Shown piece after piece: positions 1-64,000 of a DNA stretch of 64,000 bases. Position 1 is the first letter of the stretch, and each line of letters starts with the position of its first letter. The DNA is taken from NCBI GenBank assembly GCA_034231615.1, contig CM067306.1:45762094-45826093 (forward strand). Direction: 5' to 3'. Position numbers and translations under genes: made by a program. Below the pieces are notes generated by a model. It saw only the letters and a list, made by a program, of their open reading frames with translations, was not told where the DNA came from and did not search any database. This DNA comes from Meghimatium bilineatum (lineage: Eukaryota; Mollusca; Gastropoda; Stylommatophora; Philomycidae).

Positions 1-643
1 AGTTTAGTATGTCAGAACTCGTTGTATTCTGGCATATTACTCACAAATTCATTGTACTGAAGCTTACTACACTAGAATTGAATGTATTCTGGTCAATTAC
101 ACATGATTTCGTTGTATTGCAGCTTAATACTTCAGAGCACTGGCGTATTAAACACGAATTGGGAGTATTGCAGTTTAGTACGCCAAAACTCGTTGTATTC
201 TAGGATATTACTAACAAATTGGGTGCACTGAAACTTACTACACCACAATTCAGTGTTAGCTGATCACAAATATGGTATCTTGTAGTTTACTTCGTCAGAA
301 CTGGCGTTACACACGAATTGGGTGTATTGCAGTTTAGTACGTATGAACTCGTTGTATTCTGGCATATTACTCACAAATTCATTGTACTGAAGCTTACTAG
401 ACTAGAATTGAGTGTATACTGGCCCATTACACATGATTTCGATGTATTGCAGCTTAATACTTCAGAACACTGGCGTATTAAACACGAATTGGGAGTATTG
501 CAGTTTACTACAACTCGTTGTATTGTGGCATATTACTCACTAATGTGGTGTACTAAAGATTACTACACCACAACACAGTTTGCTTGTCACAAATATGTAT
601 GTTGTAGCTTACGTCGTTAGAACTGGCGTTACACACGAATTGA
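1..643 (+). repeat. Partial module L-Sa-L-Sc (start truncated)
   Basis: L 1-162 (first 9 bp missing), Sa 163-321, L 322-492, Sc 493-643 (151 bp). Matches 8,486-9,128 almost exactly except that the Sc tail has ACGTCGTTAG, an Sb-like ending, followed by an Sb-partner L. Confidence 0.88.
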
Positions 644-1636
644 GTGTATTGCAGTTTAGTATGTCAGAACTCGTTGTATTCTGGCATATTACTCACAAAT
701 TCATTGTACTGAAGCTTACTACACTAGAATTGAATGTATTCTGGTCAATTACACATGATTTCGTTGTATTGCAGCTTAATACTTCAGAAACTGGTGTATT
801 AAACACGAATTGGGAGTATTGCATTTAGTACGCCAAAACTCGTTGTATTCTGGCATATTAATCACAAATTCATTGTACTGAAGCTTACTACACTAGAATT
901 GAGTGTATACTGGCCTATTGCACATGATTTCGTTGTATTGCAGCTTAATACTTCAGAACACTGGAGTATACACACAAGTTGGGTGTACTGCAGTTTAGTA
1001 CACCAAAAATCGTTGTATTCTGGCATATTACTCACTAATTTGGTGTACTGAAGCTTACTACACCACAACTACGTGTTTGCTTGTCACAAATATGGTATGT
1101 TGTAGCTTACTTCGTTAGAACTGGCGTTACACACGAATTGAGTGTATTGCATTTTAGTACGTCAGAACTCGTTGTATTCTGGCATATTACTCACAAATTC
1201 ATTGTACTGAAGCTTACTACACTAGAATCGAATGTATTCTGGTCAATTACACATGATTTCGTTGTATTGCAGCTTAATACTTCAGAAACTGGTGTATTAA
1301 ACACGAATTGGGAGTATTGCAGTTTAGTACGCCAAAACTCGTTGTATTCTGGCATATTAATCACAAATTCATTGTACTGAAGCTTACTACACTAGAATTG
1401 AGTGTATACTGGCCTATTGCACATGATTTCGTTGTATTGCAGCTTAATACTTCAGAACACTGGCGTATTAAACACGAATTGGGAGTATTGCAGTTTACTA
1501 CACCAACTCGTTGTATTGTGGCATATTACTCACTAATGTGGTGTACTGAAGATTACTACACCACAACACAGTTTGCTTGTCACAAATATGTATGTTGTAG
1601 CTTACTTCGTTAGAACTGGCGTTACACACGAATTGA
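644..1636 (+). repeat. Module LLSLLS, 993 bp
   Basis: Monomer lengths 170+169+159+170+171+154. Two L carry CAGAAACTGGTG (1-bp loss in E). The first S is Sb-like with C ending CACAACTAC. Confidence 0.87.
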
Positions 1637-2305
1637 GTATATTGCAGTTTAGTACGTCAGAACTTAGTTGTATTCTGGCATATTACTCACAAATTCATTG
1701 TACTGAAGCTTACTACACGAGAATTGAGTATATTCTGGCCCATTACACATGATTTCGTTGTATTGCAGCTTCATACGTCAGAACACTGGCGTATACACAC
1801 GAATTGGGTGTTCTGCAGTTTAGTACACCAAAACTCGTTGTATTCTGGTATATTAATCACAAATTCAATGTACTGAAGCTTACTATACTAGAATTGAGTG
1901 TATACTGGCATATTGCACATGACTTCGTTGTATTGCAGCTTAATACGTCAGAACACTGGCGTATTACACAGGAATTGGCTGTATTGCAGTGTAGTACGCC
2001 AAAACTCGTTGTATTCTGGAATATTACTCACACATTCATTGTAGTGAAGCTTACTAGACTAGAATTGAGTGTATACTGGCCCATTACACATTATTTCGTT
2101 GTATTGCAGCTTAATACTTCAGAACACTGGGGTATTAAACACGAATTGGGAGTATTGCAGTTTACTACACCAACTCGTTGTATTGTGGCATATTACTCAC
2201 TAATGTATGGTGTACTGAAAATTACTACACCACAACACAGTTTGCTTGTCACAAATATGTATGTTGTAGCTTACTTCGTTAGAACTGGCTTTACACACGA
2301 ATTGA
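1637..2305 (+). repeat. Module LLLS, 669 bp
   Basis: Lengths 171+171+171+156, the same architecture as 15,430-16,098 and 17,603-18,271. First L has a 31-bp A part (GAACTTAG) offset by a 50-bp E; the Sc is 156 bp with TAATGTATGGTG. Confidence 0.85.
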
Positions 2306-6303: not shown

Positions 6304-7636
6304 GTGTATTGCAGTTTAGTACGTCAGAACTCGTTGTATTCTGGCATATTACTCACAAATACATTGTACTGAAGCTTACTAAACTAGAATTGAGTATATT
6401 CTGGCCCATTACACATGATTTCGTTGTATTGCAGCTTCATACGTCAGAACACTGGCGTATACACAAGAATTGGGTGTATTGCAGTGTAGTACGCCAACTC
6501 TCGTTGTATTCTGGAATATTATACATTCATTGTAGTGAAGCTTACTACACTAGAATTGAGTGTATACTGGCGTATTGCACATGATTTCGTTGTATTGCAG
6601 CTTAATACTTCAGAACACTGGCGTATGCACAAGAATTGGGTGTACTGCAGTTTAGTACGCCAAAACTTGTTGTATTCTGGAATATTACTCACAAATTCAT
6701 TGTACTGAAGCTTACTACACTAGAATTGAGTGTATTCTGGCCTATTACACTTGATTTCGTTCTAGTGCAGCTTAAAACGTCAGAATACTTGCGTATTACG
6801 CACGAATTGGGTGTATTGCAGTTTAAGTACACCAAAACTCGTTGCATTCTGGCAGATTACTCACTAATTTGGTGTACTGAAGCTTACTACACCACAACTC
6901 AGTGTTTGCTTGTCACAAATATGGTATGTTGTAGCTTACTTCGTTAGAACTGGCGTTACACACGAATTGAGTGTATTGCAGTTTAGTACGTCAGAACTCG
7001 TTGTATTCTGGCATATTACTCACAAATTCATTGTACTGAAGCTTACTACACTAGAATTGAATGTATTCTGGTCAATTACACATGATTTCGTTGTATTGCC
7101 TCTTAATACTTCAGAACACTGGCGTATTAAACACGAATTGGGAGTATTGCAGTTTAGTACGTATGAACTCGTTGTATTCTGGCATATTAATCACATATTC
7201 ATTGCACTGAAGCTTACTACACTAGAATTGAGTGTATACTGGCCTATTGCGCATGATTTCGTTGTATTGCAGCTTAATACGTCAGAAAACTGGCGCATCA
7301 CATACGAATTGGGTGTATTCCAGTTTAGTACGCCTAAACTCGTTGTATTCTGGCATATTACTCACAAATTCATTGTAAAGCTTACTACACTAGAATTGAG
7401 TGTATACTGGACCATTACACATTATTTCGTTGTATTGCAGCTTAATAATTCAGAACACTGGCGTATTAAACACGAATTGGGAGTATTGCAGTTTACTACA
7501 CCAACTCGTTGTATTGTGGCATATTACTCACTAATGTATGGTGTACTGAAGATTACTACACCACAACACAGTTTGCTTGTCACAAATATGTATGTTGTAG
7601 CTTACTTCGTTAGAACTGGCGTTACACACGAATTGA
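6304..7636 (+). repeat. Module LLLSLLLS, 1,333 bp
   Basis: Lengths 170+166+171+160+171+171+168+156. Contains an early Sd copy (6,811-6,970). The 168-bp L has a 27-bp C part (TTGTAAAGCTTAC), a marker shared with about 15,170 and 25,465. Confidence 0.86.
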
Positions 7637-9128
7637 GTGTATTGCAGTTTAGTACGTCAGAACTCGTTGTATTCTGGCATATTACTCACAAATTCATTGT
7701 ACTGAAGCTTACTACACTAGAATTGAGTATATTCTGGCCCATTACACATGATTTCGTTGTATTGCAGCTTCATACGTCAGAACACTGGCGTATTACACAA
7801 GAATTGGGTGTATTGCAGTGTAGTACGCCAAAACTCGTTGTATTCTGGAATATTACTCACACATTCATTGTAGTGAAGCTTACTACACTAGAATTGAGTG
7901 TATACTGGCCTATTGCACATGATTTCGTTGTATTGCAGCTTAATACTTCAGAACACTGTCGTATACACAAGAATTGGGTGTATTGCAGTTTAGTACGCCA
8001 AAACTTGTTGTATTCTGGAATATTACTCACAAATTCATTGCACTGAAGCTTACTACACTATAATTGAGTGTATAGAGTCCTATTGCACATGATTTCTTTG
8101 TATTGCAGCTTAATACGTCAGATCACTGGCGTATCACACAGGAATTTGGTGTATTCCAGTTTAGTACGGCAAACCTCGTTGTATTCTGGCATATTACTCA
8201 CAAATTCATTGTACTGAAGCTTACTACACTAGAATTGAGTATATTCTGGCCCATTACACATGATTTCGTTGTATTGCAGCAATACGTCAGAACACTGGCG
8301 TATTACACACGAATTGGGTGTATTCCAGTTTAGTACGGCAAACCTCGTTGTATTCTGGCATATTACTCACTAATTTGGTGTACTGAAGCTTACTACACCA
8401 TAACTCAGTGTTTGCTTGTCACAAATATGGTATGTTGTAGCTTACGTCGTTAGAACTGGCGTTACACACGAATTGAGTGTATTGCAGTTTAGTATGTCAG
8501 AACTCGTTGTATTCTGGCATATTACTCACAAATTCATTGTACTGAAGCTTACTACACTAGAATTGAATGTATTCTGGTCAATTACACATGATTTCGTTGT
8601 ATTGCAGCTTAATACTTCAGAGCACTGGCGTATTAAACACGAATTGGGAGTATTGCAGTTTAGTACGCCAAAACTCGTTGTATTCTAGGATATTACTAAC
8701 AAATTGGGTGCACTGAAACTTACTACACCACAATTCAGTGTTAGCTGATCACAAATATGGTATCTTGTAGTTTACTTCGTCAGAACTGGCGTTACACACG
8801 AATTGGGTGTATTGCAGTTTAGTACGTATGAACTCGTTGTATTCTGGCATATTACTCACAAATTCATTGTACTGAAGCTTACTAGACTAGAATTGAGTGT
8901 ATACTGGCCCATTACACATGATTTCGATGTATTGCAGCTTAATACTTCAGAACACTGGCGTATTAAACACGAATTGGGAGTATTGCAGTTTACTACAACT
9001 CGTTGTATTGTGGCATATTACTCACTAATGTGGTGTACTAAAGATTACTACACCACAACACAGTTTGCTTGTCACAAATATGTATGTTGTAGCTTACTTC
9101 GTTAGAACTGGCGTTACACACGAATTGA
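7637..9128 (+). repeat. 9-mer HOR LLLLSLSLS, left type, 1,492 bp (unit 1)
   Basis: First of three tandem 1,492-bp units. Monomers in order: L, L, L, L, Sb, L, Sa, L, Sc. The edge of the 10,295-bp super-unit falls inside it at 8,318. Confidence 0.93.
9097..9113 (+). other. CENP-B-box-like 17-mer in S monomer tail (weak)
   Basis: CTTCGTTAGAACTGGCG matches 12 of 17 positions of the mammalian CENP-B box YTTCGTTGGAARCGGGA, including the left TTCGTT and the central GAA. The essential right half CGGG is TGGC here, so binding by a canonical CENP-B is not expected. The string recurs in Sc and Sd; Sa has a CTTCGTCAG and Sb a CGTCGTTAG version. It is an observation of resemblance, not a proven site. 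Confidence 0.25.
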
Positions 9129-9299
9129 GTGTATTGCAGTTTAGTACGTCAGAACTCGTTGTATTCTGGCATATTACTCACAAATTCATTGTACTGAAGC
9201 TTACTACACTAGAATTGAGTATATTCTGGCCCATTACACATGATTTCGTTGTATTGCAGCTTCATACGTCAGAACACTGGCGTATTACACAAGAATTGG
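9129..9299 (+). repeat. Exemplar long monomer L (171 bp, six ~30-bp sub-repeats)
   Basis: Sub-repeats: A 9129-9158 (starts GTGTATTGCAGTTTAGTACG), B 9159-9188 (TTGTATTCTGGCATATTACT), C 9189-9218 (TTGTACTGAAGCTTACTACA), D 9219-9248 (TATTCTGGCCCATTACACAT inside), E1 9249-9278 (TTGTATTGCAGCTTCATACG), E2 9279-9299 (GGCGTATTACACAAGAATTG). All share the pattern T-G-T-A-T/C-T-n-n-n-G-G/C, an ATTAC/TTAC core and an AATT or CTCG end. E2 aligns with the last 21 bp of B, so it looks like a sub-repeat lacking its first 9 bp. A HindIII site lies in C at 9197-9202 and recurs in nearly every L. Consensus L is ~37% GC with five CpG. Length variants (165-170 bp) come from small deletions, mostly in B, C and E. 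Confidence 0.93.
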
Positions 9300-9809
9300 G
9301 TGTATTGCAGTGTAGTACGCCAAAACTCGTTGTATTCAGGAATATTACTCACACATTCATTGTAGTGAAGCTTACTACACTAGAATTGAGTGTATACTGG
9401 CCTATTGCACATGATTTCGTTGTATTGCAGCTTAATACTTCAGAACACTGTCGTATACACAAGAATTGGGTGTATTGCAGTTTAGTACGCCAAAACTTGT
9501 TGTATTCTGGAATATTACTCACAAATTTATTGCACTGAAGCTTACTACACTATAATTGAGTGTATAGAGTCCTATTGCACATGATTTCTTTGTATTGCAG
9601 CTTAATACGTCAGATCACTGGCGTATCACACAGGAATTTGGTGTATTCCAGTTTAGTACGGCAAACCTCGTTGTATTCTGGCATATTACTCACAAATTCA
9701 TTGTACTGAAGCTTACTACACTAGAATTGAGTATATTCTGGCCCATTACACATGATTTCGTTGTATTGCAGCAATACGTCAGAACACTGGCGTATTACAC
9801 ACGAATTGG

Positions 9810-9968
9810 GTGTATTCCAGTTTAGTACGGCAAACCTCGTTGTATTCTGGCATATTACTCACTAATTTGGTGTACTGAAGCTTACTACACCATAACTCAG
9901 TGTTTGCTTGTCACAAATATGGTATGTTGTAGCTTACGTCGTTAGAACTGGCGTTACACACGAATTGA
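9810..9968 (+). repeat. Exemplar short monomer Sb (159 bp)
   Basis: 30+30+30 bp A-C parts plus a 69-bp tail starting GTGTTTGCTTGTCACAAATA and continuing with TGGTATG. B ends CACTAATTTG and C ends ACACCATAACTCA, both typical of S monomers. The HindIII site in C is kept. In the left-half 9-mers it is followed by an L whose A part contains TAGTATGTCAG; the same pairing is seen at 37,887-38,216 in the right half. Confidence 0.9.
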
Positions 9969-10139
9969 GTGTATTGCAGTTTAGTATGTCAGAACTCGTT
10001 GTATTCTGGCATATTACTCACAAATTCATTGTACTGAAGCTTACTACACTAGAATTGAATGTATTCTGGTCAATTACACATGATTTCGTTGTATTGCAGC
10101 TTAATACTTCAGAGCACTGGCGTATTAAACACGAATTGG

Positions 10140-10298
10140 GAGTATTGCAGTTTAGTACGCCAAAACTCGTTGTATTCTAGGATATTACTAACAAATTGGG
10201 TGCACTGAAACTTACTACACCACAATTCAGTGTTAGCTGATCACAAATATGGTATCTTGTAGTTTACTTCGTCAGAACTGGCGTTACACACGAATTGG
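10140..10298 (+). repeat. Exemplar short monomer Sa (159 bp)
   Basis: A, B and C parts are 30 bp each, then a 69-bp tail replaces the 81-bp D-E1-E2 of L. The tail starts GTGTTAGCTGATCACAAATA, and the GCTGATCAC with a TGATCA palindrome is diagnostic of this subtype. C reads GTGCACTGAAACTTAC, so the HindIII site is lost. Sa appears about once per 9-mer. In the right half it is 158 bp in most copies because its A part lost one base (TACTCCAAACTCG). The tail contains CTTCGTCAGAACTGGCG, a partial CENP-B-box-like string. Confidence 0.9.
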
Positions 10299-10469
10299 GT
10301 GTATTGCAGTTTAGTACGTATGAACTCGTTGTATTCTGGCATATTACTCACAAATTCATTGTACTGAAGCTTACTAGACTAGAATTGAGTGTATACTGGC
10401 CCATTACACATGATTTCGTTGTATTGCAGCTTAATACTTCAGAACACTGGCGTATTAAACACGAATTGG

Positions 10470-10620
10470 GAGTATTGCAGTTTACTACAACTCGTTGTAT
10501 TGTGGCATATTACTCACTAATGTGGTGTACTAAAGATTACTACACCACAACACAGTTTACTTGTCACAAATATGTATGTTGTAGCTTACTTCGTTAGAAC
10601 TGGCGTTACACACGAATTGA
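10470..10620 (+). repeat. Exemplar short monomer Sc (151 bp), module end marker
   Basis: A part 25 bp here (TTTACTACAACTCG), 28 bp in most other copies (TTTACTACACCAACTCG in the left half, TTTACTAAACCAACTCG in many right-half copies). B begins TTGTATTGTGGCATATTACT, C contains AAAGATTAC or GAAGATTAC in place of the HindIII site, and the tail is 66 bp with AAATATGTATG. I find 50 copies and used their ends to delimit modules. A 145-bp version with a 9-bp deletion (GTGGCACTAATG) occurs near 39,747, 44,380 and 58,186. Confidence 0.9.
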
Positions 10621-12112
10621 GTGTATTGCAGTTTAGTACGTCAGAACTCGTTGTATTCTGGCATATTACTCACAAATTCATTGTACTGAAGCTTACTACA
10701 CTAGAATTGAGTATATTCTGGCCCATTACACATGATTTCGTTGTATTGCAGCTTCATACGTCAGAACACTGGCGTATTACACAAGAATTGGGTGTATTGC
10801 AGTGTAGTACGCCAAAACTCGTTGTATTCTGGAATATTACTCACACATTCATTGTAGTGAAGCTTACTACACTAGAATTGAGTGTATACTGGCCTATTGC
10901 ACATGATTTCGTTGTATTGCAGCTTAATACTTCAGAACACTGTCGTATACACAAGAATTGGGTGTATTGCAGTTTAGTACGCCAAAACTTGTTGTATTCT
11001 GGAATATTACTCACAAATTCATTGCACTGAAGCTTACTACACTATAATTGAGTGTATAGAGTCCTATTGCACATGATTTCTTTGTATTGCAGCTTAATAC
11101 GTCAGATCACTGGCGTATCACACAGGAATTTGGTGTATTCCAGTTTAGTACGGCAAACCTCGTTGTATTCTGGCATATTACTCACAAATTCATTGTACTG
11201 AAGCTTACTACACTAGAATTGAGTATATTCTGGCCCATTACACATGATTTCGTTGTATTGCAGCAATACGTCAGAACACTGGCGTATTACACACGAATTG
11301 GGTGTATTCCAGTTTAGTACGGCAAACCTCGTTGTATTCTGGCATATTACTCACTAATTTGGTGTACTGAAGCTTACTACACCATAACTCAGTGTTTGCT
11401 TGTCACAAATATGGTATGTTGTAGCTTACGTCGTTAGAACTGGCGTTACACACGAATTGAGTGTATTGCAGTTTAGTATGTCAGAACTCGTTGTATTCTG
11501 GCATATTACTCACAAATTCATTGTACTGAAGCTTACTACACTAGAATTGAATGTATTCTGGTCAATTACACATGATTTCGTTGTATTGCAGCTTAATACT
11601 TCAGAGCACTGGCGTATTAAACACGAATTGGGAGTATTGCAGTTTAGTACGCCAAAACTCGTTGTATTCTAGGATATTACTAACAAATTGGGTGCACTGA
11701 AACTTACTACACCACAATTCAGTGTTAGCTGATCACAAATATGGTATCTTGTAGTTTACTTCGTCAGAACTGGCGTTACACACGAATTGGGTGTATTGCA
11801 GTTTAGTACGTATGAACTCGTTGTATTCTGGCATATTACTCACAAATTCATTGTACTGAAGCTTACTAGACTAGAATTGAGTGTATACTGGCCCATTACA
11901 CATGATTTCGTTGTATTGCAGCTTAATACTTCAGAACACTGGCGTATTAAACACGAATTGGGAGTATTGCAGTTTACTACAACTCGTTGTATTGTGGCAT
12001 ATTACTCACTAATGTGGTGTACTAAAGATTACTACACCACAACACAGTTTGCTTGTCACAAATATGTATGTTGTAGCTTACTTCGTTAGAACTGAGGTTA
12101 CACACGAATTGA
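10621..12112 (+). repeat. 9-mer HOR LLLLSLSLS, left type, 1,492 bp (unit 3)
   Basis: Same monomer order and length as the preceding unit. Differences from unit 2 are scattered substitutions, for example TTTCGTTG versus TTTCGATG in some copies of the eighth monomer across the array. Confidence 0.93.
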
Positions 12113-14267
12113 GTGTATTGCAGTTTAGTACGTCAGAACTCGTTGTATTCTGGCATATTACTCACAAATTCATTGTACTGAAGCTTATTACACTAGAATT
12201 GAGTATATTCTGGCCCATTACACATGATTTCGTTGTATTGCAGCTTCATACGTCAGAACAATTGCGTATTACACAAGAATTGGGTGTATTGCAGTGTAGT
12301 ACGCCAAAACTCGTTGTATTCAGGAATATTACTCACACATTCATTGTAGTGAAGCTTACTACACTAGAATTGAGTGTATACTGGCCTATTGCACATGATT
12401 TCGTTGTATTGCAGCTTAATACTTCAGAACACTGTCGTATACACAGGAATTTGGTGTATTCCAGTTTAGTACGGCAAACCTCGTTGTATTCTGGCATATT
12501 ACAAATTCATTGTACTGAAGCTTACTACACTAGAATTGAGTATATTCTGGCCCATTACACATGATTTCGTTGTATTGCAGCTTAATACGTCAGATCACTG
12601 GCGTATCACACAGGAATTTGGTGTATTCCAGTTTAGTACGGCAAACCTCGTTGTATTCTGGCATATTACTCACTAATTTGGTGTACTGAAGCTTACTACA
12701 CCATAACTCAGTGTTTGCTTGTCACAAATATGGTATGTTGTAGCTTACGTCATTAGAACTGGCGTTACACACGAATTGAGTGTATTGCAGTTTAGTATGT
12801 CAGAACTCGTTGTATTCTGGCATATTACTCACAAATTCATTGTACTGAAGCTTACTAGACTAGAATTGAGTATATTCTGGCCCATTACACATGATTTCGT
12901 TGTATTGCAGCTTCATACGTCAGAACACGTGCGTATTACACACAAATTGGGTGTACTGCAGTTTAGTACGCCAAAACTTGTTGTATTCTGGCATATTAAT
13001 CACAAATTCATTGCACTGAAGCTTACTACACTAGAATTGAGTGTATAGAGTCCTATTGCACATGATTTCTTTGTATTGCAGCTTAATACGTCAGAACACT
13101 GGCGTATCACATAGGAATTTGGTGTATTCCAGTTTAGTACGGCAAACCTCGTTGTATTCTGGCATATTACTCACAAATTCATTGTACTGAAGCTTACTAC
13201 ACTAGAATTGAGTATATTCTGGCCCATTACACATGATTTCGTTGTATTGCAGCTTAATACGTCAGAACACTGGCGTATTACACACGAATTGGGTGTATTG
13301 CAGTTTAGTACACCAAAACTCGTTGTATTCTGGCATATTACTCACTAATTTGGTGTACTGAAGCTTACTACACCATAACTCAGTGTTTGCTTGTCACAAA
13401 TATGGTATTTTGTAGCTTACGTCGTTAGAACTGGCGTTACACACGAATTGAGTGTATTGCAGTTTAGTATGTCAGAACTCGTTGTATTCTGGCATATTAC
13501 TCACAAATTCATTGTACTGAAGCTTACTACACTAGAATTGAATGTATTCTGGTCAATTACACATGATTTCGTTGTATTGCAGCTTAATACTTCAGAGCAC
13601 TGGCGTATTAAACACGAGTTGGGAGTATTGCAGTTTAGTACGCCAAAACTCGTTGTATTCTAGGATATTACTAACAAATTTGGTGCACTGAAACTTACTA
13701 CACCACAATTCAGTGTTAGCTGATCACAAATATGGTATCTTGTAGTTTACTTCGTCAGAACTGGCGTTACACACGAATTGGGTGTATTGCAGTTTAGTTA
13801 GTATGAACTCGTTGTATTCTGGCATATTACTCACAAATTCATTGTACTGAAGCTTACTAGACTAGAATTGAGTGTATACTGGCCCATTTCGTTGTATTGC
13901 AGCTTAATACGTCAGAACACTGGCGTATCACATAGGAATTTGGTGTATTCCAGTTTAGTACGGCAAACCTCGTTGTATTCTGGCATATTACTCACAAATT
14001 CATTGTACTGAAGCTTACTACACTAGAATTGAGTATATTCTGGCCCATTACACATGATTTCGTTGTATTGCAGCTTAATACTTCAGAACACTGGCGTATT
14101 AAACACGAAATGGGAGTATTGCAGTTTACTACACCAACTCGTTGTATTGTGGCATATTACTCACTAATGTGGTGTACTAAAGATTACTACACCACAACAC
14201 AGTTTGCTTGTCACAAATATGTATGTTGTAGCTTACTTCGTTAGAACTGGCGTTACACACGAATTGA
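12113..14267 (+). repeat. Module of 13 monomers, 2,155 bp (copy 1)
   Basis: Order LLLSLLLSLSLLS, lengths 171,170,167,159,171,171,171,159,171,159,161,171,154. The 161-bp L (13,782-13,942) lost 10 bp in D (GGCCCATTTCG), a marker found only here and 10,295 bp downstream. Confidence 0.9.
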
Positions 14268-51310: not shown

Positions 51311-52817
51311 GTGTATTGCAGTTTAGTACGTCAGAACTCGTTGTATTCTGGCATATTACTCACAAATTCATTGTACTGAAGCTTACTACACTAGAATTGA
51401 ATGTATTCTGGTCAATTACACATGATTTCGTTGTATTGCAGAATACTTCAGAACACTGGTGTATTAAACACGCATTGGGAGTAGTGCAGTTTAGTACGCC
51501 AGAACTCGTTGTATTCTGGCATATTAGTCACAAATTCATTGCACTGAAGCTTACTACACTAGAATTGAGTGTATAGAGGCCTATTGCAAATGATTTCTTT
51601 GTATTGCAGCGTAATACGTCAGAACACTGGCGTATCACATAGGAATTTTGTGTATTCCAGTTTAGTACGGCAAACCTCGTTGTATTCTGGCATATTACTC
51701 ACAAATTCATTGTACTGAAGCTTACTACACTAGAATTGAGTATATTCTGGCCCATTACACATGATTTCGTTGTATTGCAGCTTCATACGTCAGAACACTT
51801 GCGTATTACACACGAATTGGGTGTACTGCACTTTAGTACGCCAAAACTTGTTGTATTCTGGAATATTACTCACAAATTCATTGTACTGAAGCTTACTACA
51901 CTAGAATTGAGTGTATTCTGGCCTATTACACTTGATTTCGTTGTAGTGCAGCTTAAAACGTCAGAACACTTGCGTATTACACACGAATTGGGTGTATTGC
52001 AGTTTAAGTACACCAAAACTCGTTGCATTCTGGCAGATTACTCACTAATTTGGTGTACTGAAGCTTACTACACCACAACTCAGTGTTTGCTTCTCACAAA
52101 TATCGTATGTTGTAGCTTACTTCGTTAGAACTGGCGTTACACACGAATTGAGTGTATTGCAGTTTAGTACGTCAGAACTCGTTGTATTCTGGCATATTAC
52201 TCACAAATTCATTGTACTGAAGCTTACTACACTAGAATTGAATGTATTCTGGTCAATTACACATGATTTCGTTGTATTGCAGAATACTTCAGAACACTGG
52301 TGTATTAAACACGCATTGGGAGTAGTGCAGTTTAGTACGCCAGAACTCGTTGTATTCTGGCATATTAATCACAAATTCATTGCACTGAAGCTTACTACAC
52401 TAGAATTGAGTGTATAGAGGCCTATTGCACATGATTTCTTTGTATTGCAGCTTAATACGTCAGAACACTGGCGTATCACATAGGAATTTGGTGTATTCCA
52501 GTTTAGTACGGCAAACCTCGTTGTATTCTGGCATATTACTCACAAATTCATTGTACTGAAGCTTACTACACTAGAATTGAGTATATTCTGGCCCATTACA
52601 CATGATTTCGTTGTATTGCAGCTTAATACGTCAGAACACTGGCGTATTACACACGAATTGGGTGTATTGCAGTTTAGTACACCAAAACTCGTTGTATTCT
52701 GGCATATTACTCACTAATTTAGTGTACTGAAGCTTACTACACCACAACACAGTTTGCTTGTCACAAATATGTATGTTGTAGCTTACTTCGTTAGAACTGG
52801 CGTTACACACGAATTGA
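51311..52817 (+). repeat. Module LLLLSdLLLSc, 1,507 bp, extra tandem copy
   Basis: 168+171+171+171+160+168+171+171+156, repeating 49,804-51,310. Not present at the matching place in the first segment. Has several private substitutions (ATTAGTCAC near 51,526, GCAAATGATTTC near 51,587, CAGCGTAAT near 51,608, TTTTGTGTATTCC near 51,646, CTTCTCACAA near 52,091). Confidence 0.9.
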
Positions 52818-54316
52818 GTGTATTGCAGTTTAGTACGTCAGAACTCGTTGTATTCTGGCATATTACTTACAAATTCATTGTACTGAAGCTTACTACACTA
52901 GAATTGAGTATATTCTGGCCCATTACACATGATTTCGTTGTATTGCAGCTTCATACGTCAGAACACTTGCGTATTACACACGAATTGGGTGTACTGCAGT
53001 TTAGTACGCCAAAACTTGTTGTATTCTGGAATATTACTCACAAATTCATTGTACTGAAGCTTACTACACTAGAATTGAGTGTATTCTGGCCTATTACACT
53101 TGATTTCGTTGTAGTGCAGCTTAAAACGTCAGAACACTTGCGTATTACACACGAATTGGGTGTATTGCAGTTTAAGTACACCAAAACTCGTTGCATTCTG
53201 GCAGATTACTCACTAATTTGGTGTACTGAAGCGTACTACACCACAACTCAGTGTTTGCTTGTCACAAATATCGTATGTTGTAGCTTACTTCGTTAGAACT
53301 GGCGTTACACACGAATTGAGTGTATTGCAGTTTAGTACGTCAGAACTCGTTGTATTCTGGCATATTACTCACAAATTCATTGTACTGAAGCTTACTACAC
53401 TAGAATTGAATGTATTCTGGTCAATTACACATGATTTCGTTGTATTGCAGCTTAATACTTCAGAACACTGGTGTATTAAACACGAATTGGGAGTAGTGCA
53501 GTTTAGTACGCCAAAACTCGTTGTATTCTGGCATATTAATCACAAATTCATTGCACTGAAGCTTACTACACTAGAATTGAGTGTATAGAGGCCTATTGCA
53601 CATGATTTCTTTGTATTGCAGCTTAATACGTCAGAACACTGGCGTATCACATAGGAATTTGGTGTATTCCAGTTTAGTACGGCAAACCTCGTTGTATTCT
53701 GGCATATTACTCACAAATTCATTGTACTGAAGCTTACTACACTAGAATTGAGTATATTCTGGCCCATTACACATGATTTCGTTGTATTGCAGCTTAATAC
53801 GTCAGAACACTGGCGTATTACACACGAATTGGGTGTATTGCAGTTTAGTACACCAAAACTCGTTGTATTCTGGCATATTAGTCACTAATTTGGTGTACTG
53901 AAGCTTACTACACCATAACTCAGTGTTTGCTTGTCACAAATATGGTATGTTGTAGCTTACGTCGTTAGAACTGGCGTTACACACGAATTGAGTGTATTGC
54001 AGTTTAGTATGTCAGAACTCGTTGTATTCTGGCATATTACTCACAAATTCATTGTACTGAAGCTTACTAGACTAGAATTGAGTGTATACTGGCCCATTAC
54101 ACATGATTTCGTTGTATTGCAGCTTAATACTTCAGAACACTGGCGTATTAAACACGAATTGGGAGTATTACAGTTTACTAAACCAACTCGTTGTATTGTG
54201 GCATATTACTCACTAATGTGGTGTACTAAAGATTACTACACCACAACACAGTTTGCTTGTCACAAATATGTATGTTGTAGCTTACTTCGTTAGAACTGGC
54301 GTTACACACGAATTGA
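52818..54316 (+). repeat. Module LLSLLLSLS, 1,499 bp
   Basis: Counterpart of 31,731-33,229. The shared TACTTACAAATTC variant and GGGAGTATTACAG confirm the pairing. Confidence 0.92.
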
Positions 54317-55311
54317 GTGTATTGCAGTTTAGTACGTCAGAACTCGTTGTATTCTGGCATATTACTCACAAATTCATTGTACTGAAGCTTACTACACTAG
54401 AATTGAGTATATTCTGGCCCATTACACATGATTTCGTTGTATTGCAGCTTAATACGTCAGAACACTGGCGTATTACACACGAATTGGGTGTATTGCAGTT
54501 TAGTACACCAAAACTCGTTGTATTCTGGCATATTACTCACTAATTTGGTGTACTGAAGCTTACTACACCATAACTCAGTGTTTGCTTGTCACAAATATGG
54601 TATGTTGTAGCTTACGTCGTTAGAACTGGCGTTACACACGAATTGAGTGTATTGCAGTTTAGTATGTCAGAACTCGTTGTATTCTGGCATATTACTCACA
54701 AATTCATTGTACTGAAGCTTACTAGACTAGAATTGAGTGTATACTGGCCCATTACACATGATTTCGTTGTATTGCAGCTTCATACGTCAGAACACTTGCG
54801 TATTACACACGAATTGGGTGTACTGCAGTTTAGTACGCCAAAACTTGTTGTATTCTGGAATATTTCTCACAAATTCATTGTACTGAAGCTTACTACACTA
54901 GAATTGAATGTATTCTGGTCAATTACACATGATTTCGTTGTATTGCAGCTTAATACTTCAGAACACGTGTATTAAACACGAATTGGGAGTAGTGCAGTTT
55001 AGTACGCCAAAACTCGTTGTATTCTGGCATATTAATCACAAATTCATTGCACTGAAGCTTACTACACTAGAATTGAGTGTATAGAGTCCTATTGCACATG
55101 ATTTCGTTGTATTGCAGCTTAATACTTCAGAACACTGGCGTATTAAACACGAATTGGGAGTATTGCAGTTTACTAAACCAACTCGTTGTATTGTGGCATA
55201 TTACTCACTAATGTGGTGTACTAAAGATTACTACACCACAACACAGTTTGCTTGTCACAAATATGTATGTTGTAGCTTACTTCGTTAGAACTGGCGTTAC
55301 ACACGAATTGA
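54317..55311 (+). repeat. Module LSLLLS, 995 bp, internally deleted
   Basis: 171+159+171+169+171+154. Compared with 33,230-35,381 it lacks 1,157 bp. The join is inside the fifth monomer, where GTGTATAGAGTCC is followed directly by GATTTCGTTG and a first-class E part. Confidence 0.9.
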
Positions 55312-56806
55312 GTGTATTGCAGTTTAGTACGTCAGAACTCGTTGTATTCTGGCATATTACTCACAAATTCATTGTACTGAAGCTTACTACACTAGAGTTG
55401 AGTATGTTCTGGCCCATTACACATGATTTCGTTGTATTGCAGCTTCATACGTCAGAACACTTGGGTATTACACACGAATTGGGTGTACTGCAGTTTAGTA
55501 CGCCAAAACTTGTTGTATTCTGGAATATTACTCACAAATTCATTGTACTGAAGCTTACTACACTAGAATTGAATGTATTCTGGTCAATTACACATGATTT
55601 CGTTGTATTGCAGCTTAATACTTCAGAACACGTGTATTAAACACGAATTGGGAGTAGTGCAGTTTAGTACGCCAAAACTCGTTGTATTCTGGCATATTAA
55701 TCACAAATTCATTGCACTGAAGCTTACTACACTAGAATTGAGTGTATAGAGTCCTATTGCACATGATTTCTTTGTATTGCAGCTTAATACGTCAGAACAC
55801 TGGCGTATCACATAGGAATTTGGTGTATTCCAGTTTAGTACGGCAAACCTCGTTGTATTCTGGCATATTACTCACAAATTCATTGTACTGAAGCTTACTA
55901 CACTAGAATTGAGTATATTCTGGCCCATTACACATGATTTCGTTGTATTGCAGCTTAATACTTCAGAACACTGGCGTATTAAACACGAAGTAGGAGTATT
56001 GCAGTTTAGTACTCCAAACTCGTTGTATTCTAGGATATTACTAACAAATTGGGTGCACTGAAACTTACTACACCACAATTCAGTGTTAGCTGATCACAAA
56101 TATGGTATCTTGTAGTTTACTTCGTCAGAACTGGCGTTACACACGAATTGGGTGTATTGCAGTTTAGTACGTATGAACTCGTTGTATTCTGGCATATTAC
56201 TCACAAATTCATTGTACTGAAGCTTACTACACTAGAATTGAATGTATACTGGCCTATTGCACATGATTTCGTTGTATTGCAGCTTAATACTTCAGAACAC
56301 TGGCGTATTAAACACGAAGTAGGAGTATTGCAGTTTGGTACGCCAAAACTCGTTGTATTCTGGCATATTACTCACTAATTTGGTGTACTGAAGCTTACTA
56401 CACCATAACTCAGTGTTTGCTTGTCACAAATATGGTATGTTGTAGCTTACGTCGTTAGATCTGACGTTACACACGAATTGAGTGTATTGCAGTTTAGTAT
56501 GTCAGAACTCGTTGTATTCTGGCATATTACTCACAAATTCATTGTACTGAAGCTTACTAGACTAGAATTGAGTGTATACTGGCCCATTACACATGATTTC
56601 GTTGTATTGCAGCTTAATACTTCAGAACACTGGCGTATTAAACACGAATTGGGAGTATTGCAGTTTACTAAACCTACTCGTTGTATTGTGGCATATTACT
56701 CACTAATGTGGTGTACTAAAGATTACTACACCACAACACAGTTTGCTTGTCACAAATATGTATGTTGTAGCTTACTTCGTTAGAACTGGCGTTACACACG
56801 AATTGA
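55312..56806 (+). repeat. 9-mer HOR, right type, 1,495 bp
   Basis: Counterpart of 35,382-36,875; both carry CACTTGGGTATT. Confidence 0.92.
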
Positions 56807-58292
56807 GTGTATTGCAGTTTAGTACGTCAGAACTCGTTGTATTCTGGCATATTACTCACAAATTCATTGTACTGAAGCTTACTACACTAGAGTTGAGTAT
56901 ATTCTGGCCCATTACACATGATTTCGTTGTATTGCAGCTTCATACGTCAGAACACTTGCGTATTACACACGAATTGGGTGTACTGCAGTTTAGTACGCCA
57001 AAACTTGTTGTATTCTGGAATATTACTCACAAATTCATTGTACTGAAGCTTACTACACTAGAATTGAATGTATTCTGGTCAATTACACATGATTTCGTTG
57101 TATTGCAGCTTAATACTTCAGAACACGTGTATTAAACACGAATTGGAAGTAGTGCAGTTTAGTACGCCAAAACTCGTTGTATTCTGGCATATTAATCACA
57201 AATTCATTGCACTGAAGCTTACTACACTAGAATTGAGTGTATAGAGTCCTATTGCACATGATTTCTTTGTATTGCAGCTTAATACGTCAGAACACTGGCG
57301 TATCACATAGGAATTTGGTGTATTCCAGTTTAGTACGGCAAACCTCGTTGTATTCTGGCATATTACTCACAAATTCATTGTACTGAAGCTTACTACACTA
57401 GAATTGAGTATATTCTGGCCCATTACACATGATTTCGTTGTATTGCAGCTTAATACTTCAGAACACTGGCGTATTAAACACGAAGTAGGAGTATTGCAGT
57501 TTAGTACTCCAAACTCGTTGTATTCTAGGATATTACTAACAAATTGGGTGCACTGAAACTTACTACACCACAATTCAGTGTTAGCTGATCACAAATATGG
57601 TATCTTGTAGTTTACTTCGTCAGAACTGGCGTTACACACGAATTGGGTGTATTGCAGTTTAGTACGTATGAACTCGTTGTATTCTGGCATATTACTCACA
57701 AATTCATTGTACTGAAGCTTACTACACTAGAATTGAATGTATACTGGCCTATTGCACATGATTTCGTTGTATTGCAGCTTAATACTTCAGAACACTGGCG
57801 TATTAAACACGAAGTAGGAGTATTGTAGTTTGGTACGCCAAAACTCGTTGTATTCTAGGATATTACTAACAAATTGGGTGAACTGAAACTTACTACACCA
57901 CAATTCAGTGTTAGCTGATCACAAATATGGTATATTGTAGTTTACTTCGTCAGAACTGGCGTTACACACGAATTGGGTGTATTGCACTTTAGTACGTATG
58001 AACTCGTTGTATTCTGGCATATTACTCACAAATTCATTGTACTGAAGCTTACTAGACTAGAATTGAGTGTATACTGGCCCATTACACATGATTTCGTTGT
58101 ATTGCAGCTTAATACTTCAGAACACTGGCGTATTAAACACGAATTGGGAGTATTGCAGTTTACTACACCAACTCGTTGTATTGTGGCACTAATGTGGTGT
58201 ACTGAAGATTACTACACCACAACACAGTTTGCTTGTCACAAATATGTATGTTGTAGCTTACTTCGTTAGAACTGGCGTTACACACGAATTGA
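56807..58292 (+). repeat. 9-mer HOR, Sa-Sa variant, 1,486 bp
   Basis: Counterpart of 38,371-39,856 with the same 9-bp Sc deletion. One full 9-mer (36,876-38,370) is missing between this and the previous pair. Confidence 0.92.
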
Positions 58293-58947
58293 GTGTATTG
58301 CAGTTTAGTACGTCAGAACTCGTTGTATTCTGGCATATTACTCACAAATTCATTGTACTGAAGCTTACTACACTAGAATTGAGTATATTCTGGCCCATTA
58401 CACATGATTTCGTTGTATTGCAGCTTAATACGTCAGAACACTGGCGTATTACACACGAATTGGGTGTATTGCAGTTTAGTACACCAAAACTCGCTGTATT
58501 CTGGCATATTACTCACTAATTTGGTGTACTGAAGCTTACTACACCATAACTCAGTGTTTGCTTGTCACAAATATGGTATGCTGTAGCTTACGTCGTTAGA
58601 ACTGGCGTTACACACGAATTGAGTGTATTGCAGTTTAGTATGTCAGAACTCGTTGTATTCTGGCATATTACTCACAAATTCATTGTACTGAAGCTTACTA
58701 GACTAGAATTGAGTGTATACTGGCCCATTACACATGATTTCGTTGTATTGCAGCTTAATACTTCAGAACACTGGCGTATTAAACACGAATTGGGAGTATT
58801 GCAGTTTACTAAACCAACTCGTTGTATTGTGGCATATTACTCACTAATGTGGTGTACTAAAGATTACTACACCACAACACAGTTTGCTTGTCACAAATAT
58901 GTATGTTGTAGCTTACTTCGTTAGAACTGGCGTTACACACGAATTGA
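58293..58947 (+). repeat. 4-mer HOR LSLS, 655 bp
   Basis: Counterpart of 39,857-40,511. Confidence 0.92.
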
Positions 58948-60442
58948 GTGTATTGCAGTTTAGTACGTCAGAACTCGTTGTATTCTGGCATATTACTCAC
59001 AAATTCATTGTACTGAAGCTTACTACACTAGAGTTGAGTATATTCTGGCCCATTACACATGATTTCGTTGTATTGCAGCTTCATACGTCAGAACACTTGC
59101 GTATTACACACGAATTGGGTGTACTGCAGTTTAGTACGCCAAAACTTGTTGTATTCTGGAATATTACTCACAAATTCATTGTACTGAAGCTTACTACACT
59201 AGAATTGAATGTATTCTGGTCAATTACACATGATTTCGTTGTATTGCAGCTTAATACTTCAGAACACGTGTATTAAACACGAATTGGGAGTAGTGCAGTT
59301 TAGTACGCCAAAACTCGTTGTATTCTGGCATATTAATCACAAATTCATTGCACTGAAGCTTACTACACTAGAATTGAGTGTATAGAGTCCTATTGCACAT
59401 GATTTCTATGTATTGCAGCTTAATACGTCAGAACACTGGCGTATCACATAGGAATTTGGTGTATTCCAGTTTAGTACGGCAAACCTCGTTGTATTCTGGC
59501 ATATTACTCACAAATTCATTGTACTGAAGCTTACTACACTAGAATTGAGTATATTCTGGCCCATTACACATGATTTCGTTGTATTGCAGCTTAATACTTC
59601 AGAACACTGGCGTATTAAACACGAAGTAGGAGTATTGCAGTTTAGTACTCCAAACTCGTTGTATTCTAGGATATTACTAACAAATTGGGTGCACTGAAAC
59701 TTACTACACCACAATTCAGTGTTAGCTGATCACAAATATGGTATCTTGTAGTTTACTTCGTCAGAACTGGCGTTACACACGAATTGGGTGTATTGCAGTT
59801 TAGTACGTATGAACTCGTTGTATTCTGGCATATTACTCACAAATTCATTGTACTGAAGCTTACTACACTAGAATTGAATGTATACTGGCCTATTGCACAT
59901 GATTTCGTTGTATTGCAGCTTAATACTTCAGAACACTGGCGTATTAAACACGAAGTAGGAGTATTGCAGTTTGGTACGCCAAAACTCGTTGTATTCTAGG
60001 ATATTACTAACAAATTGGGTGAACTGAAACTTACTACACCACAATTCAGTGTTAGCTGATCACAAATATGGTATATTGTAGTTTACTTCGTCAGAACTGG
60101 CGTTACACACGAATTGGGTGTACTGCAGTTTAGTACGTATGAACTCGTTGTATTCTGGCATATTACTCACAAATTCATTGTACTGAAGCTTACTAGACTA
60201 GAATTGAGTGTATACTGGCCCATTACACATGATTTCGTTGTATTGCAGCTTAATACTTCAGAACACTGGCGTATTAAACACGAATTGGGAGTATTGCAGT
60301 TTACTACACCAACTCGTTGTATTGTGGCATATTACTCACTAATGTGGTGTACTGAAGATTACTACACCACAACACAGTTTGCTTGTCACAAATATGTATG
60401 TTGTAGCTTACTTCGTTAGAACTGGCGTTACACACGAATTGA
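58948..60442 (+). repeat. 9-mer HOR, Sa-Sa variant, 1,495 bp
   Basis: Counterpart of 40,512-42,006. Confidence 0.92.
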
Positions 60443-61607
60443 GTGTATTGCAGTTTAGTACGTCAGAACTCGTTGTATTCTGGCATATTACTCACAAATT
60501 CATTGTACTGAAGCTTACTACACTAGAGTTGAGTATATTCTGGCCCATTACACATGATTTCGTTGTATTGCAGCTTCATACGTCAGAACACTTGCGTATT
60601 ACACACGAATTGGGTGTACTGCAGTTTAGTACGCCAAAACTTGTTGTATTCTGGAATATTACTCACAAATTCATTGTACTGAAGCTTACTACACTAGAAT
60701 TGAATGTATTCTGGTCAATTACACATGATTTCGTTGTATTGCAGCTTAATACTTCAGAACACGTGTATTAAACACGAATTGGGAGTAGTGCAGTTTAGTA
60801 CGCCAAAACTCGTTGTATTCTGGCATATTAATCACAAATTCATTGCACTGAAGCTTACTACACTAGAATTGAGTGTATAGAGTCCTATTGCACATGATTT
60901 CTTTGTATTGCAGCTTAATACGTCAGAACACTGGCGTATCACATAGGAATTTGGTGTATTCCAGTTTAGTACGGCAAACCTCGTTGTATTCTGGCATATT
61001 ACTCACAAATTCATTGTACTGAAGCTTACTACACTAGAATTGAGTATATTCTGGCCCATTACACATGATTTCGTTGTATTGCAGCTTAATACTTCAGAAC
61101 ACTGGCGTATTAAACACGAAGTAGGAGTATTGCAGTTTAGTACTCCAAACTCGTTGTATTCTAGGATATTACTAACAAATTGGGTGCACTGAAACTTACT
61201 ACACCACAATTCAGTGTTAGCTGATCACAAATATGGTATCTTGTAGTTTACTTCGTCAGAACTGGCGTTACACACGAATTGGGTGTATTGCAGTTTAGTA
61301 CGTATGAACTCGTTGTATTCTGGCATATTACTCACAAATTCATTGTACTGAAGCTTACTACACTAGAATTGAATGTATACTGGCCTATTGCACATGATTT
61401 CGTTGTATTGCAGCTTAATACTTCAGAACACTGGCGTATTAAACACGAATTGGGAGTATTACAGTTTACTAAACCAACTCGTTGTATTGTGGCATATTAC
61501 TCACTAATGTGGTGTACTAAAGATTACTACACCACAACACAGTTTGCTTGTCACAAATATGTATGTTGTAGCTTACTTCGTTAGAACTGGCGTTACACAC
61601 GAATTGA
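60443..61607 (+). repeat. Module LLLLSLS, 1,165 bp
   Basis: 171+169+171+171+158+171+154. Follows 42,007 to about 42,920, then differs: the sixth monomer continues into an Sc with ATTACAGTTTACTAAACC, the form seen near 33,078 and 54,161. Confidence 0.9.
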
Positions 61608-62262
61608 GTGTATTGCAGTTTAGTACGTCAGAACTCGTTGTATTCTGGCATATTACTCACAAATTCATTGTACTGAAGCTTACTACACTAGAATTGAGTA
61701 TATTCTGGCCCATTACACATGATTTCGTTGTATTGCAGCTTAATACGTCAGAACACTGGCGTATTACACACGAATTGGGTGTATTGCAGTTTAGTACACC
61801 AAAACTCGTTGTATTCTGGCATATTACTCACTAATTTGGTGTACTGAAGCTTACTACACCATAACTCAGTGTTTGCTTGTCACAAATATGGTATGTTGTA
61901 GCTTACGTCGTTAGAACTGGCGTTACACACGAATTGAGTGTATTGCAGTTTAGTATGTCAGAACTCGTTGTATTCTGGCATATTACTCACAAATTCATTG
62001 TACTGAAGCTTACTAGACTAGAATTGAGTGTATACTGGCCCATTACACATGATTTCGTTGTATTGCAGCTTAATACTTCAGAACACTGGCGTATTAAACA
62101 CGAATTGGGAGTATTGCAGTTTACTAAACCAACTCGTTGTATTGTGGCATATTACTCACTAATGTGGTGTACTAAAGATTACTACACCACAACACAGTTT
62201 GCTTGTCACAAATATGTATGTTGTAGCTTACTTCGTTAGAACTGGCGTTACACACGAATTGA
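61608..62262 (+). repeat. 4-mer HOR LSLS, 655 bp
   Basis: 171+159+171+154 (L, Sb, L, Sc). Confidence 0.92.
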
Positions 62263-63098
62263 GTGTATTGCAGTTTAGTACGTCAGAACTCGTTGTATTC
62301 TGGCATATTACTCACAAATTCATTGTACTGAAGCTTACTACACTAGAGTTGAGTATATTCTGGCCCATTACACATGATTTCGTTGTATTGCAGCTTCATA
62401 CGTCAGAACACTTGCGTATTACACACGAATTGGGTGTACTGCAGTTTAGTACGCCAAAACTTGTTGTATTCTGGAATATTTCTCACAAATTCATTGTACT
62501 GAAGCTTACTACACTAGAATTGAATGTATTCTGGTCAATTACACATGATTTCGTTGTATTGCAGCTTAATACTTCAGAACACGTGTATTAAACACGAATT
62601 GGGAGTAGTGCAGTTTAGTACGCCAAAACTCGTTGTATTCTGGCATATTAATCACAAATTCATTGCACTGAAGCTTACTACACTAGAATTGAGTGTATAG
62701 AGTCCTATTGCACATGATTTCTTTGTATTGCAGCTTAATACGTCAGAACACTGGCGTATCACATAGGAATTTGGTGTATTCCAGTTTAGTACGGCAAACC
62801 TCGTTGTATTCTGGCATATTACTCACAAATTCATTGTACTGAAGCTTACTAGACTAGAATTGAGTGTATACTGGCCCATTACACATTATTTCGTTGTATT
62901 GCAGCTTAATACTTCAGAACACTGGCGTATTAAACACGAATTGGGAGTATTGCAGTTTACTACACCAACTCGTTGTATTGTGGCATATTACTCACTAATG
63001 TGGTGTACTGAAGATTACTACACCACAACACAGTTTGCTTGTCACAAATATGTATGTTGTAGCTTACTTCGTTAGAACTGGCGTTACACACGAATTGA
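62263..63098 (+). repeat. 5-mer module LLLLSc, 836 bp
   Basis: 171+169+171+171+154. The fourth L joins the CCAGTTTAGTACGG A part to the ACATTATTTCG D part seen near 34,510, so Sa and one L were lost here. Confidence 0.9.
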
Positions 63099-63753
63099 GT
63101 GTATTGCAGTTTAGTACGTCAGAACTCGTTGTATTCTGGCATATTACTCACAAATTCATTGTACTGAAGCTTACTACACTAGAATTGAGTATATTCTGGC
63201 CCATTACACATGATTTCGTTGTATTGCAGCTTAATACGTCAGAACACTGGCGTATTACACACGAATTGGGTGTATTGCAGTTTAGTACACCAAAACTCGT
63301 TGTATTCTGGCATATTACTCACTAATTTGGTGTACTGAAGCTTACTACACCATAACTCAGTGTTTGCTTGTCACAAATATGGTATGTTGTAGCTTACGTC
63401 GTTAGAACTGGCGTTACACACGAATTGAGTGTATTGCAGTTTAGTATGTCAGAACTCGTTGTATTCTGGCATATTACTCACAAATTCATTGTACTGAAGC
63501 TTACTAGACTAGAATTGAGTGTATACTGGCCCATTACACATGATTTCGTTGTATTGCAGCTTAATACTTCAGAACACTGGCGTATTAAACACGAATTGGG
63601 AGTATTGCAGTTTACTAAACCAACTCGTTGTATTGTGGCATATTACTCACTAATGTGGTGTACTAAAGATTACTACACCACAACACAGTTTGCTTGTCAC
63701 AAATATGTATGTTGTAGCTTACTTCGTTAGAACTGGCGTTACACACGAATTGA
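63099..63753 (+). repeat. 4-mer HOR LSLS, 655 bp
   Basis: 171+159+171+154 (L, Sb, L, Sc), like 34,727-35,381. Confidence 0.92.
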
Positions 63754-64000
63754 GTGTATTGCAGTTTAGTACGTCAGAACTCGTTGTATTCTGGCATATT
63801 ACTCACAAATTCATTGTACTGAAGCTTACTACACTAGAGTTGAGTATATTCTGGCCCATTACACATGATTTCGTTGTATTGCAGCTTCATACGTCAGAAC
63901 ACTTGCGTATTACACACGAATTGGGTGTACTGCAGTTTAGTACGCCAAAACTTGTTGTATTCTGGAATATTACTCACAAATTCATTGTACTGAAGCTTAC
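63754..64000 (+). repeat. Partial module, cut by the window end
   Basis: One complete L (63,754-63,924) and the first 76 bp of a second L, matching the start of a right-type 9-mer. Confidence 0.88.

What the first reader, a model, noticed from the sequence alone, without database searches (positions are those of the whole stretch)
1..64000. Satellite with tandem structure nested at six length scales
Periods seen directly: ~30 bp sub-repeats, 171/159-bp monomers, 655/841/1,492-1,495-bp HORs, a 4,633-bp block, a 10,295-bp super-unit and a ~20-kb-spaced segment. Each level is built from the one below with exact additive lengths. Few satellites are resolved this deeply in one contiguous window, and I do not recognise the family.
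Basis: partly seen in the sequence, partly recalled or inferred. Interest (0 to 1): 0.75.

Follow-up and report, generated by a model that had tools for sequence, protein, structure and literature searches.

The report
Multi-level tandem satellite DNA array
The whole 64-kb window looks like one eukaryotic satellite array whose short repeat has been duplicated again and again in larger blocks, a well-known way for such DNA to evolve, although the family could not be matched to a named one here.

Summary
The window is tandem satellite throughout, in one orientation: 385 whole monomers, 262 of a ~171-bp type (L) and 123 of a ~159-bp type (S). The L monomer is built of 30-bp sub-repeats. Tandem periods are real at 841 bp (5 monomers), 1,492-1,507 bp (9), 4,633 bp (28) and 10,295 bp (62); a ~20-kb segment pair carries internal indels. 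Three parts fail: 655 bp is not a tandem period; the 4,633- and 10,295-bp units are not nested; "exact additive lengths" follows from any in-register tiling. Best explanation: ordinary satellite evolution by repeated in-register unequal exchange. The 10,295-bp duplication keeps a 681-bp block identical at left edge, junction and right edge. A neutral simulation nests at least as deeply. A 58-mer alphoid unit is published. No likeness to alphoid satellite and no CENP-B box beyond chance. Host, location and family name stay open: no repeat database was on hand and the own-genome search did not complete. Oddity: S is never next to S (0 of 384 pairs, 39.2 expected).

The parts
1..64000 (+). One satellite array, both window ends open; 385 whole monomers at 16-63,948: 262 L (consensus 171 bp) and 123 S (consensus 159 bp) by similarity
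1840..2010 (+). Example of one 171-bp L period, cut by the anchor (60+111); the L consensus reads as five 30-bp units and one of 21 bp
   Evidence: for the spacing; for the consensus: five full sub-repeats agree at 17-24 of 30 positions, shuffled mean 8.1
7503..12481 (+). Nine-mer A, ~1,492 bp (S14 L0 S1 L2 S3 L23 L11 L12 L30), about 3.3 copies; about 2.8 copies again from 18,637
8317..29587 (+). 10,295-bp (62-monomer) tandem duplication, about 2.1 copies; 10 differences in 10,976 compared bases
8317..8997 (+). 681-bp block identical to 18,612-19,292 (junction) and 28,907-29,587 (right edge); likely exchange substrate of the 10,295-bp duplication
29746..31427 (+). Five-mer, 841 bp (L18 L25 S26 L39 L20), two copies (2.2 by the <=3% run); a second run starts at 49,497
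34922..39405 (+). Nine-mer B, 1,494/1,495 bp (S14 L2 S3 L18 L19 L20 L22 S1 L44), three copies by the <=3% run; further partial copies to the right
38906..48171 (+). 4,633-bp (28-monomer) tandem duplication, two copies; exact matches to the two parents overlap at 43,515-43,521, at the same monomer phase
28591..64000 (+). ~20-kb segment pair (28.6-48.3 kb and 48.3-64 kb), offsets 19,751 / 20,421 / 21,087 / 18,436 / ~17,115 with internal gains and losses; second copy runs off the window

Best explanation
This is an ordinary satellite DNA array with higher-order repeats, almost certainly eukaryotic (inference from its kind). A ~30-bp unit was multiplied to 60 bp and then to ~171 bp; a diverged ~159-bp variant (S) joined it. 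The array has since been reshaped by repeated in-register exchange between mispaired repeats (unequal sister-chromatid exchange, or break-induced replication with out-of-register strand invasion). Each exchange duplicates or deletes a block of whole monomers. Shown here: the anatomy, the in-register tiling, the near-identity of the large blocks, and the identical blocks at the edges of the 10,295-bp duplication. Inferred: the exchange mechanism, the growth from sub-repeats, and a location in centromeric or other heterochromatin.
For: Monomers tile 63.9 kb with no insert. The 10,295-bp duplication has a 681-bp block identical at left edge, junction and right edge, as exchange between two homologous blocks predicts. 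At the 4,633-bp junction the exact matches to the two parents overlap by 7 bp at the same monomer phase. 18 of 48 monomer classes carried my in-register mosaic flag (at least 4 fewer mismatches than the nearest single class, at most 2 left); no null was run for this. Identity tiers: 30-mers 17-24 of 30; L against L 90.8% and L against S consensus 77%; tandem blocks of 5 or more monomers about 99.0-99.9% (edges included). Neutral in-register duplication/deletion, at the mutation setting nearest to the L-L diversity, gave nesting depth 2-4 in 36 of 36 runs against 2 observed by the same measure. Precedent: Smith's unequal-crossover model (in the review PMC8122249, passages); array expansion by break-induced replication (PMC11034957, outline and abstract).
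Against: Nothing here separates unequal crossover from break-induced replication or rolling-circle reinsertion. The largest tandem lag (62) exceeds the simulated medians (20-44 at that setting; maxima were not printed), and at higher mutation settings simulated depth fell to as low as 1. The complete absence of adjacent S monomers is not expected from random breakpoints, and strict like-with-like exchange is contradicted by the 4,633-bp junction, where an S3 body meets the last 24 bases of an L20. The identity of the edge blocks could be later gene conversion rather than the substrate. An assembly error in the near-identical blocks cannot be excluded without reads.
Confidence: 0.85

Rival explanations
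1. The L/S order and the large units are kept by selection, for example because a protein must bind at a set spacing, as the CENP-B box sits in alternate alphoid monomers.
For: S is never followed by S in 384 neighbour pairs (39.2 expected for random order), while L-L occurs 138 times in 39 distinct class junctions. Variation along L is uneven: 10-bp steps range from 0.7% to 15.9% over 104 distinct L. L and S share outer segments (7 substitutions in 96 positions) and differ in the middle (20 in 63).
Against: Exchange of like with like keeps S isolated without selection (0.99-1.0 of 200 simulated runs per setting had no S-S). No CENP-B box beyond chance: best 10 of 17 in L (414 of 500 base shuffles as good) and 12 of 17 in S (31 of 500). 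Uneven variation could be local gene conversion.
Confidence: 0.1
2. It is a repeated coding region (tandem-repeat protein), since one forward frame of L has no stop and the longest stop-to-stop frame is 412 codons.
For: The 97 stop-to-stop frames of at least 100 aa are all on the + strand, longest 412 aa. The L consensus has no stop in its third forward frame, and variation is slightly highest at the third codon position of that frame (0.070 against 0.058 and 0.054, not tested for significance). 107 of 125 length-called S monomers are divisible by three.
Against: Only 131 of 260 length-called L monomers are divisible by three; 123 of 125 length-called S monomers and 40 of 125 171-bp L monomers carry a stop in that frame. 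The Pfam scan of the 412-aa frame gave one hit, E 0.046, below the curated cut-off.
Confidence: 0.01
3. The large near-identical blocks are assembly artefacts (a repeat graph walked twice).
For: The 10,295-bp copies differ at only 10 of 10,976 sites, all in the first 7.5 kb, and 3,528 bp are identical without a break.
Against: The copies do have 10 interior base differences; the monomers before the two copies differ (L30 before the first, L12 before the second); the ~20-kb pair carries several distinct gains and losses.
Confidence: 0.08

Closest known systems
Alphoid (alpha) satellite with cascading higher-order repeats, e.g. orangutan Y 58-mer (PMC12428378, passages) and human chromosome 3 17-mer and 36-mer (PMC11157248, passages)
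   Same: 171-bp monomer length, monomer types repeated within one higher-order unit, higher-order copies far more alike than monomers, similar unit size (58 against 62 monomers) and low copy divergence (0.25% there, 0.09% between the two copies here).
   Different: No sequence likeness to an alphoid consensus recalled from memory; no CENP-B box beyond chance; visible 30-bp sub-repeats; two length classes; only about two copies of the largest unit in the window, where the orangutan array has dozens or more.
Other animal and plant satellites with higher-order repeats (survey PMC4053949, passages: clear cases 'in 76 ...', the passage was cut there)
   Same: Same organisation and the same presumed mode of growth.
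   Different: The sequence family could not be matched to any named one with the collections on hand.

Membership tests
Satellite DNA with higher-order repeats (general class) | Long head-to-tail array of a monomer in one orientation | tested here: met
   385 whole monomers on one strand, no insert
Satellite DNA with higher-order repeats (general class) | Multi-monomer units that repeat in tandem with much higher identity than monomers within a unit | tested here: met
   Lags 5, 9, 28, 62 at <=3% divergence; L-L mean identity 90.8%
Cascading higher-order repeat (usage of PMC11157248) | The same monomer type occurs more than once inside one unit | tested here: met
   62-mer has 29 classes, 28-mer has 14 (classes at a 2.5% cut, while that paper uses 5%)
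Cascading higher-order repeat (usage of PMC11157248) | Array of many canonical copies | tested here: inconclusive
   Only about 2 copies each of the 62-mer and 28-mer in this window; the array runs past both window ends
Alphoid (alpha) satellite | Sequence similarity to the alphoid consensus | tested here: not met
   L score 18 against shuffle mean 17.8 (144 of 300 as good); S 15 against 17.3 (284 of 300) (consensus recalled from memory)
Alphoid (alpha) satellite | CENP-B box in alternate monomers | tested here: not met
   Best full-box match 10 of 17 (L) and 12 of 17 (S), not beyond shuffles. Nine-base core: 363 sites at up to 2 mismatches against 36.8 expected; the 200 sites listed all have 2 mismatches, 163 were not shown. 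Box recalled from memory
Centromeric satellite | Carries centromeric nucleosomes (CENP-A/CENH3) | not testable with these tools
   Needs ChIP or FISH
Coding tandem repeat | Reading frame kept across copies | tested here: not met
   131 of 260 L divisible by three; stops in 123 of 125 S and 40 of 125 171-bp L

The most novel reading that the evidence does not exclude
An unnamed satellite family whose two monomer types follow a strict rule, S never next to S, kept by selection or by a like-with-like recombination rule. If the rule holds across whole arrays, recombination rules could be read directly from array grammar.
Probability: 0.12. Interest if true: 0.5.

Novelty: new member of a known kind. 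Interest (0 to 1): 0.25.

Why it matters
Several generations of satellite growth (30 bp, 60 bp, monomer, 5-, 9-, 28- and 62-mer, ~20-kb blocks) can be read in one stretch, with a duplication whose likely exchange substrate (681 identical bases) is still visible. That makes it a good test case for models of satellite evolution, but the kind of structure is known. The S-isolation rule is the one item worth a follow-up.

Tried and rejected
Rejected: coding repeat; alphoid membership; known RNA family (Rfam gathering search of the window, 0 matches); strong hairpin (L consensus as single-stranded DNA, z -1.12, 25 of 200 shuffles as stable); a larger-is-younger rule for the blocks. That last idea failed: after I trimmed block edges by eye, the differences listed give about 0.65 per kb for 4,633, 0.9 for 10,295, 1 for 841, 1.5 for nine-mer B, 2.1 for the 18,436 and 21,087 offsets of the ~20-kb pair and about 3.3 for 1,507; untrimmed, 4.4 for nine-mer A, 7.1 for 2,141 and 6.9 for the 19,751 stretch. 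This is not monotonic in size.

Led nowhere: distant BLAST of 1,501 bases against plasmids and phages (no match); exact-pattern scans of viral contigs and prokaryote genome contigs, 0 matches each; six 14-17-base strings in the paper library (0 papers). Paper searches: 171/159 bp (one human X paper, listing only); nested/cascading; HindIII 171 bp (the survey PMC4053949, then passages); sub-repeats (nine papers, listing; one of them, PMC11157248, then passages); insect long-read; Tribolium and higher order repeats (seven papers, listing; PMC8122249 then passages); nested with unequal crossing-over (PMC8502840, then passages); HindIII 170 bp with 30-bp subrepeats. HindIII sites occur at monomer spacing (302 sites, commonest spacing 171); I recalled HindIII satellites of some fish and insects but had no sequence to compare.

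Limits: monomer classes depend on a 2.5% average-linkage cut (48 classes; 86 at 1%, 24 at 5%). The simulations draw block lengths log-uniformly by my choice, and the nesting measure counts whole-monomer levels only, not the 30- and 60-bp ones. One count was mended on review: mosaic-flagged classes are 18 of 48.

Full report
What is there. The 64-kb window is a single satellite array in one orientation. G+C stays at 0.369-0.379 in every 2-kb step. A period spectrum from ungapped self-matching has its peaks at, among others, 171, 60, 30, 10,295, 330, 18,436, 1,495, 3,636, 21,087, 655 and 4,633 bp over a median of 0.266. An anchor-based cut gives 385 whole monomers between 16 and 63,948 with no insert; 144 of the 385 sequences are distinct. 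Called by length there are 260 L (consensus 171 bp) and 125 S (consensus 159 bp). Called by similarity to the two consensus sequences there are 262 L and 123 S, two 161-bp monomers moving to L. Mean identity of random pairs is 90.8% among L, 90.5% among S and 70.4% between L and S; the two consensus sequences are 77% alike.

Sub-repeats. Rotated to start at TACTCAC, the L consensus splits into five 30-bp units and one of 21 bp. The five full units agree at 17-24 of 30 positions, against a mean of 8.1 for a shuffled unit. The highest agreements are between alternate units (0-2: 22, 2-4: 24, 0-4 and 1-5: 21), so I read the working unit as a 60-bp pair and the monomer as 60+51+60 (inference). This fits the 60-, 51- and 111-bp spacings. 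The global spectrum alone hardly separates the two (0.443 at 60, 0.435 at 30).

Higher-order units. With 48 monomer classes (2.5% cut), runs of at least one full period at <=3% divergence occur at lags 2 (one run of two monomers), 5 (841 bp, two places), 9 (1,492-1,507 bp, four places), 28 (4,633 bp) and 62 (10,295 bp). Shuffling monomer order in 60 trials never gave a run above 5 monomers or a tandem lag above 3. The 655-bp period is not a tandem unit: at 3% there is no lag-4 run of a full period, at 5% one at 669 bp, at 8% four at 667-670 bp. The ~20-kb level is a segment pair, 28.6-48.3 kb against 48.3-64 kb. Of 119 monomers in the first and 94 in the second, 80 align by class, with offsets 19,751, 20,421, 21,087, 18,436, 17,118 and 17,114 (and one single monomer at 18,095) and several block gains and losses between them. 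The 4,633-bp pair lies in its first copy only; the 10,295-bp pair lies almost wholly to its left, overlapping it by about 1 kb. The scales are real but do not make a single six-step ladder.

How it probably arose. The 10,295-bp copies differ at 10 of 10,976 compared bases, and a 681-bp block is identical at the left edge, the junction and the right edge (8,317; 18,612; 28,907). This is what exchange between two mispaired homologous blocks leaves. At the 4,633-bp junction the exact match to the right parent ends at 43,521 and that to the left parent begins at 43,515, at the same monomer phase in both. 18 of 48 classes carried a two-parent, in-register mosaic flag (no null model was run, so this is weak support). 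A neutral simulation of in-register duplication and deletion, at the mutation setting whose diversity is nearest to that among L, gave a nesting depth of 2-4 in all 36 runs, against 2 for the window by the same measure; the median number of distinct tandem lags was 8.5-10 against 5. At the two higher mutation settings depth was 1-4. The observed largest lag, 62, is above the simulated medians of 20-44 at the nearest setting. So nesting as such needs no special mechanism. This is the classic unequal-crossover account (Smith, in the review PMC8122249, passages); break-induced replication is a live alternative (PMC11034957, outline and abstract). The two cannot be told apart from this sequence.

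An oddity. S is never followed by S: 0 of 384 neighbour pairs, 39.2 expected for random order, while L-L occurs 138 times in 39 distinct class junctions. In simulation from the observed order, random breakpoints break the rule quickly (0.62 of 200 runs free of S-S after 5 events, 0.015 after 50), whereas exchange of like with like keeps it (1.0 after 5 to 50 events, 0.99 after 100). This suggests exchange directed by homology. It is not strict, because at the 4,633-bp junction an S3 body meets the last 24 bases of an L20, in the part that L and S share (7 substitutions in 96 outer positions, 20 in 63 in the middle). Selection on the order is possible but untested.

What it is not. No Rfam family at gathering threshold. 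Not coding: the open forward frame of L is lost in 129 of 260 L monomers by lengths not divisible by three, and stops fall in 123 of 125 S and 40 of 125 171-bp L; the Pfam scan gave one hit below its cut-off. Against this reading, variation is slightly highest at the third codon position (0.070 against 0.058 and 0.054), untested. Not alphoid: the likeness of L and S to a recalled alphoid consensus is at shuffle level, and matches to the CENP-B box are not beyond shuffles of the monomers, the S match being the nearer to significance (31 of 500). The 363 two-mismatch hits, against 36.8 expected, come from a few weak sites that recur in the monomers; 200 were listed, each with 2 mismatches.

What is known. 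Survey PMC4053949 (passages) reports clear higher-order repeats in 76 cases (the passage was cut after the number). 'Cascading' units, in which a monomer type recurs inside one unit, are described for human chromosome 3 (PMC11157248, passages), and a 58-mer with 0.25% divergence for the orangutan Y (PMC12428378, passages); a 59-mer is in the title of PMC11276891 (listing only). The window's 62-mer (29 classes) and 28-mer (14 classes) fit that description, except that only about two copies of each are seen. The family itself was not found in plasmids, phages, viral contigs or prokaryote genomes, which is expected for eukaryotic DNA and says nothing about novelty. Host, chromosome position and family name are unresolved, because the own-genome search did not complete (12 tries) and no repeat database was on hand.

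Verdict. New member of a known kind; modest interest.

Noticed in passing
16-63,948: S monomers are never neighbours (0 of 384 pairs) although L monomers often are; homology-directed exchange or selection on order.
   Followed up: partly
39,734; 44,367; 58,170: Three 147-bp S variants (class S45): one in each 4,633-bp copy and one in the second ~20-kb segment.
   Followed up: no
whole window: 302 HindIII sites, commonest spacing 171 bp, so a HindIII digest would show a ~170-bp ladder.
   Followed up: no
whole window, + strand: The 97 stop-to-stop frames of 100 aa or more all lie on the + strand because one frame of L is free of stops; the frame is not kept across monomers.
   Followed up: yes
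15,765-19,292 and 26,060-29,587: 3,528 bp of perfect identity between the 10,295-bp copies; all 10 differences lie in the first 7.5 kb.
   Followed up: no
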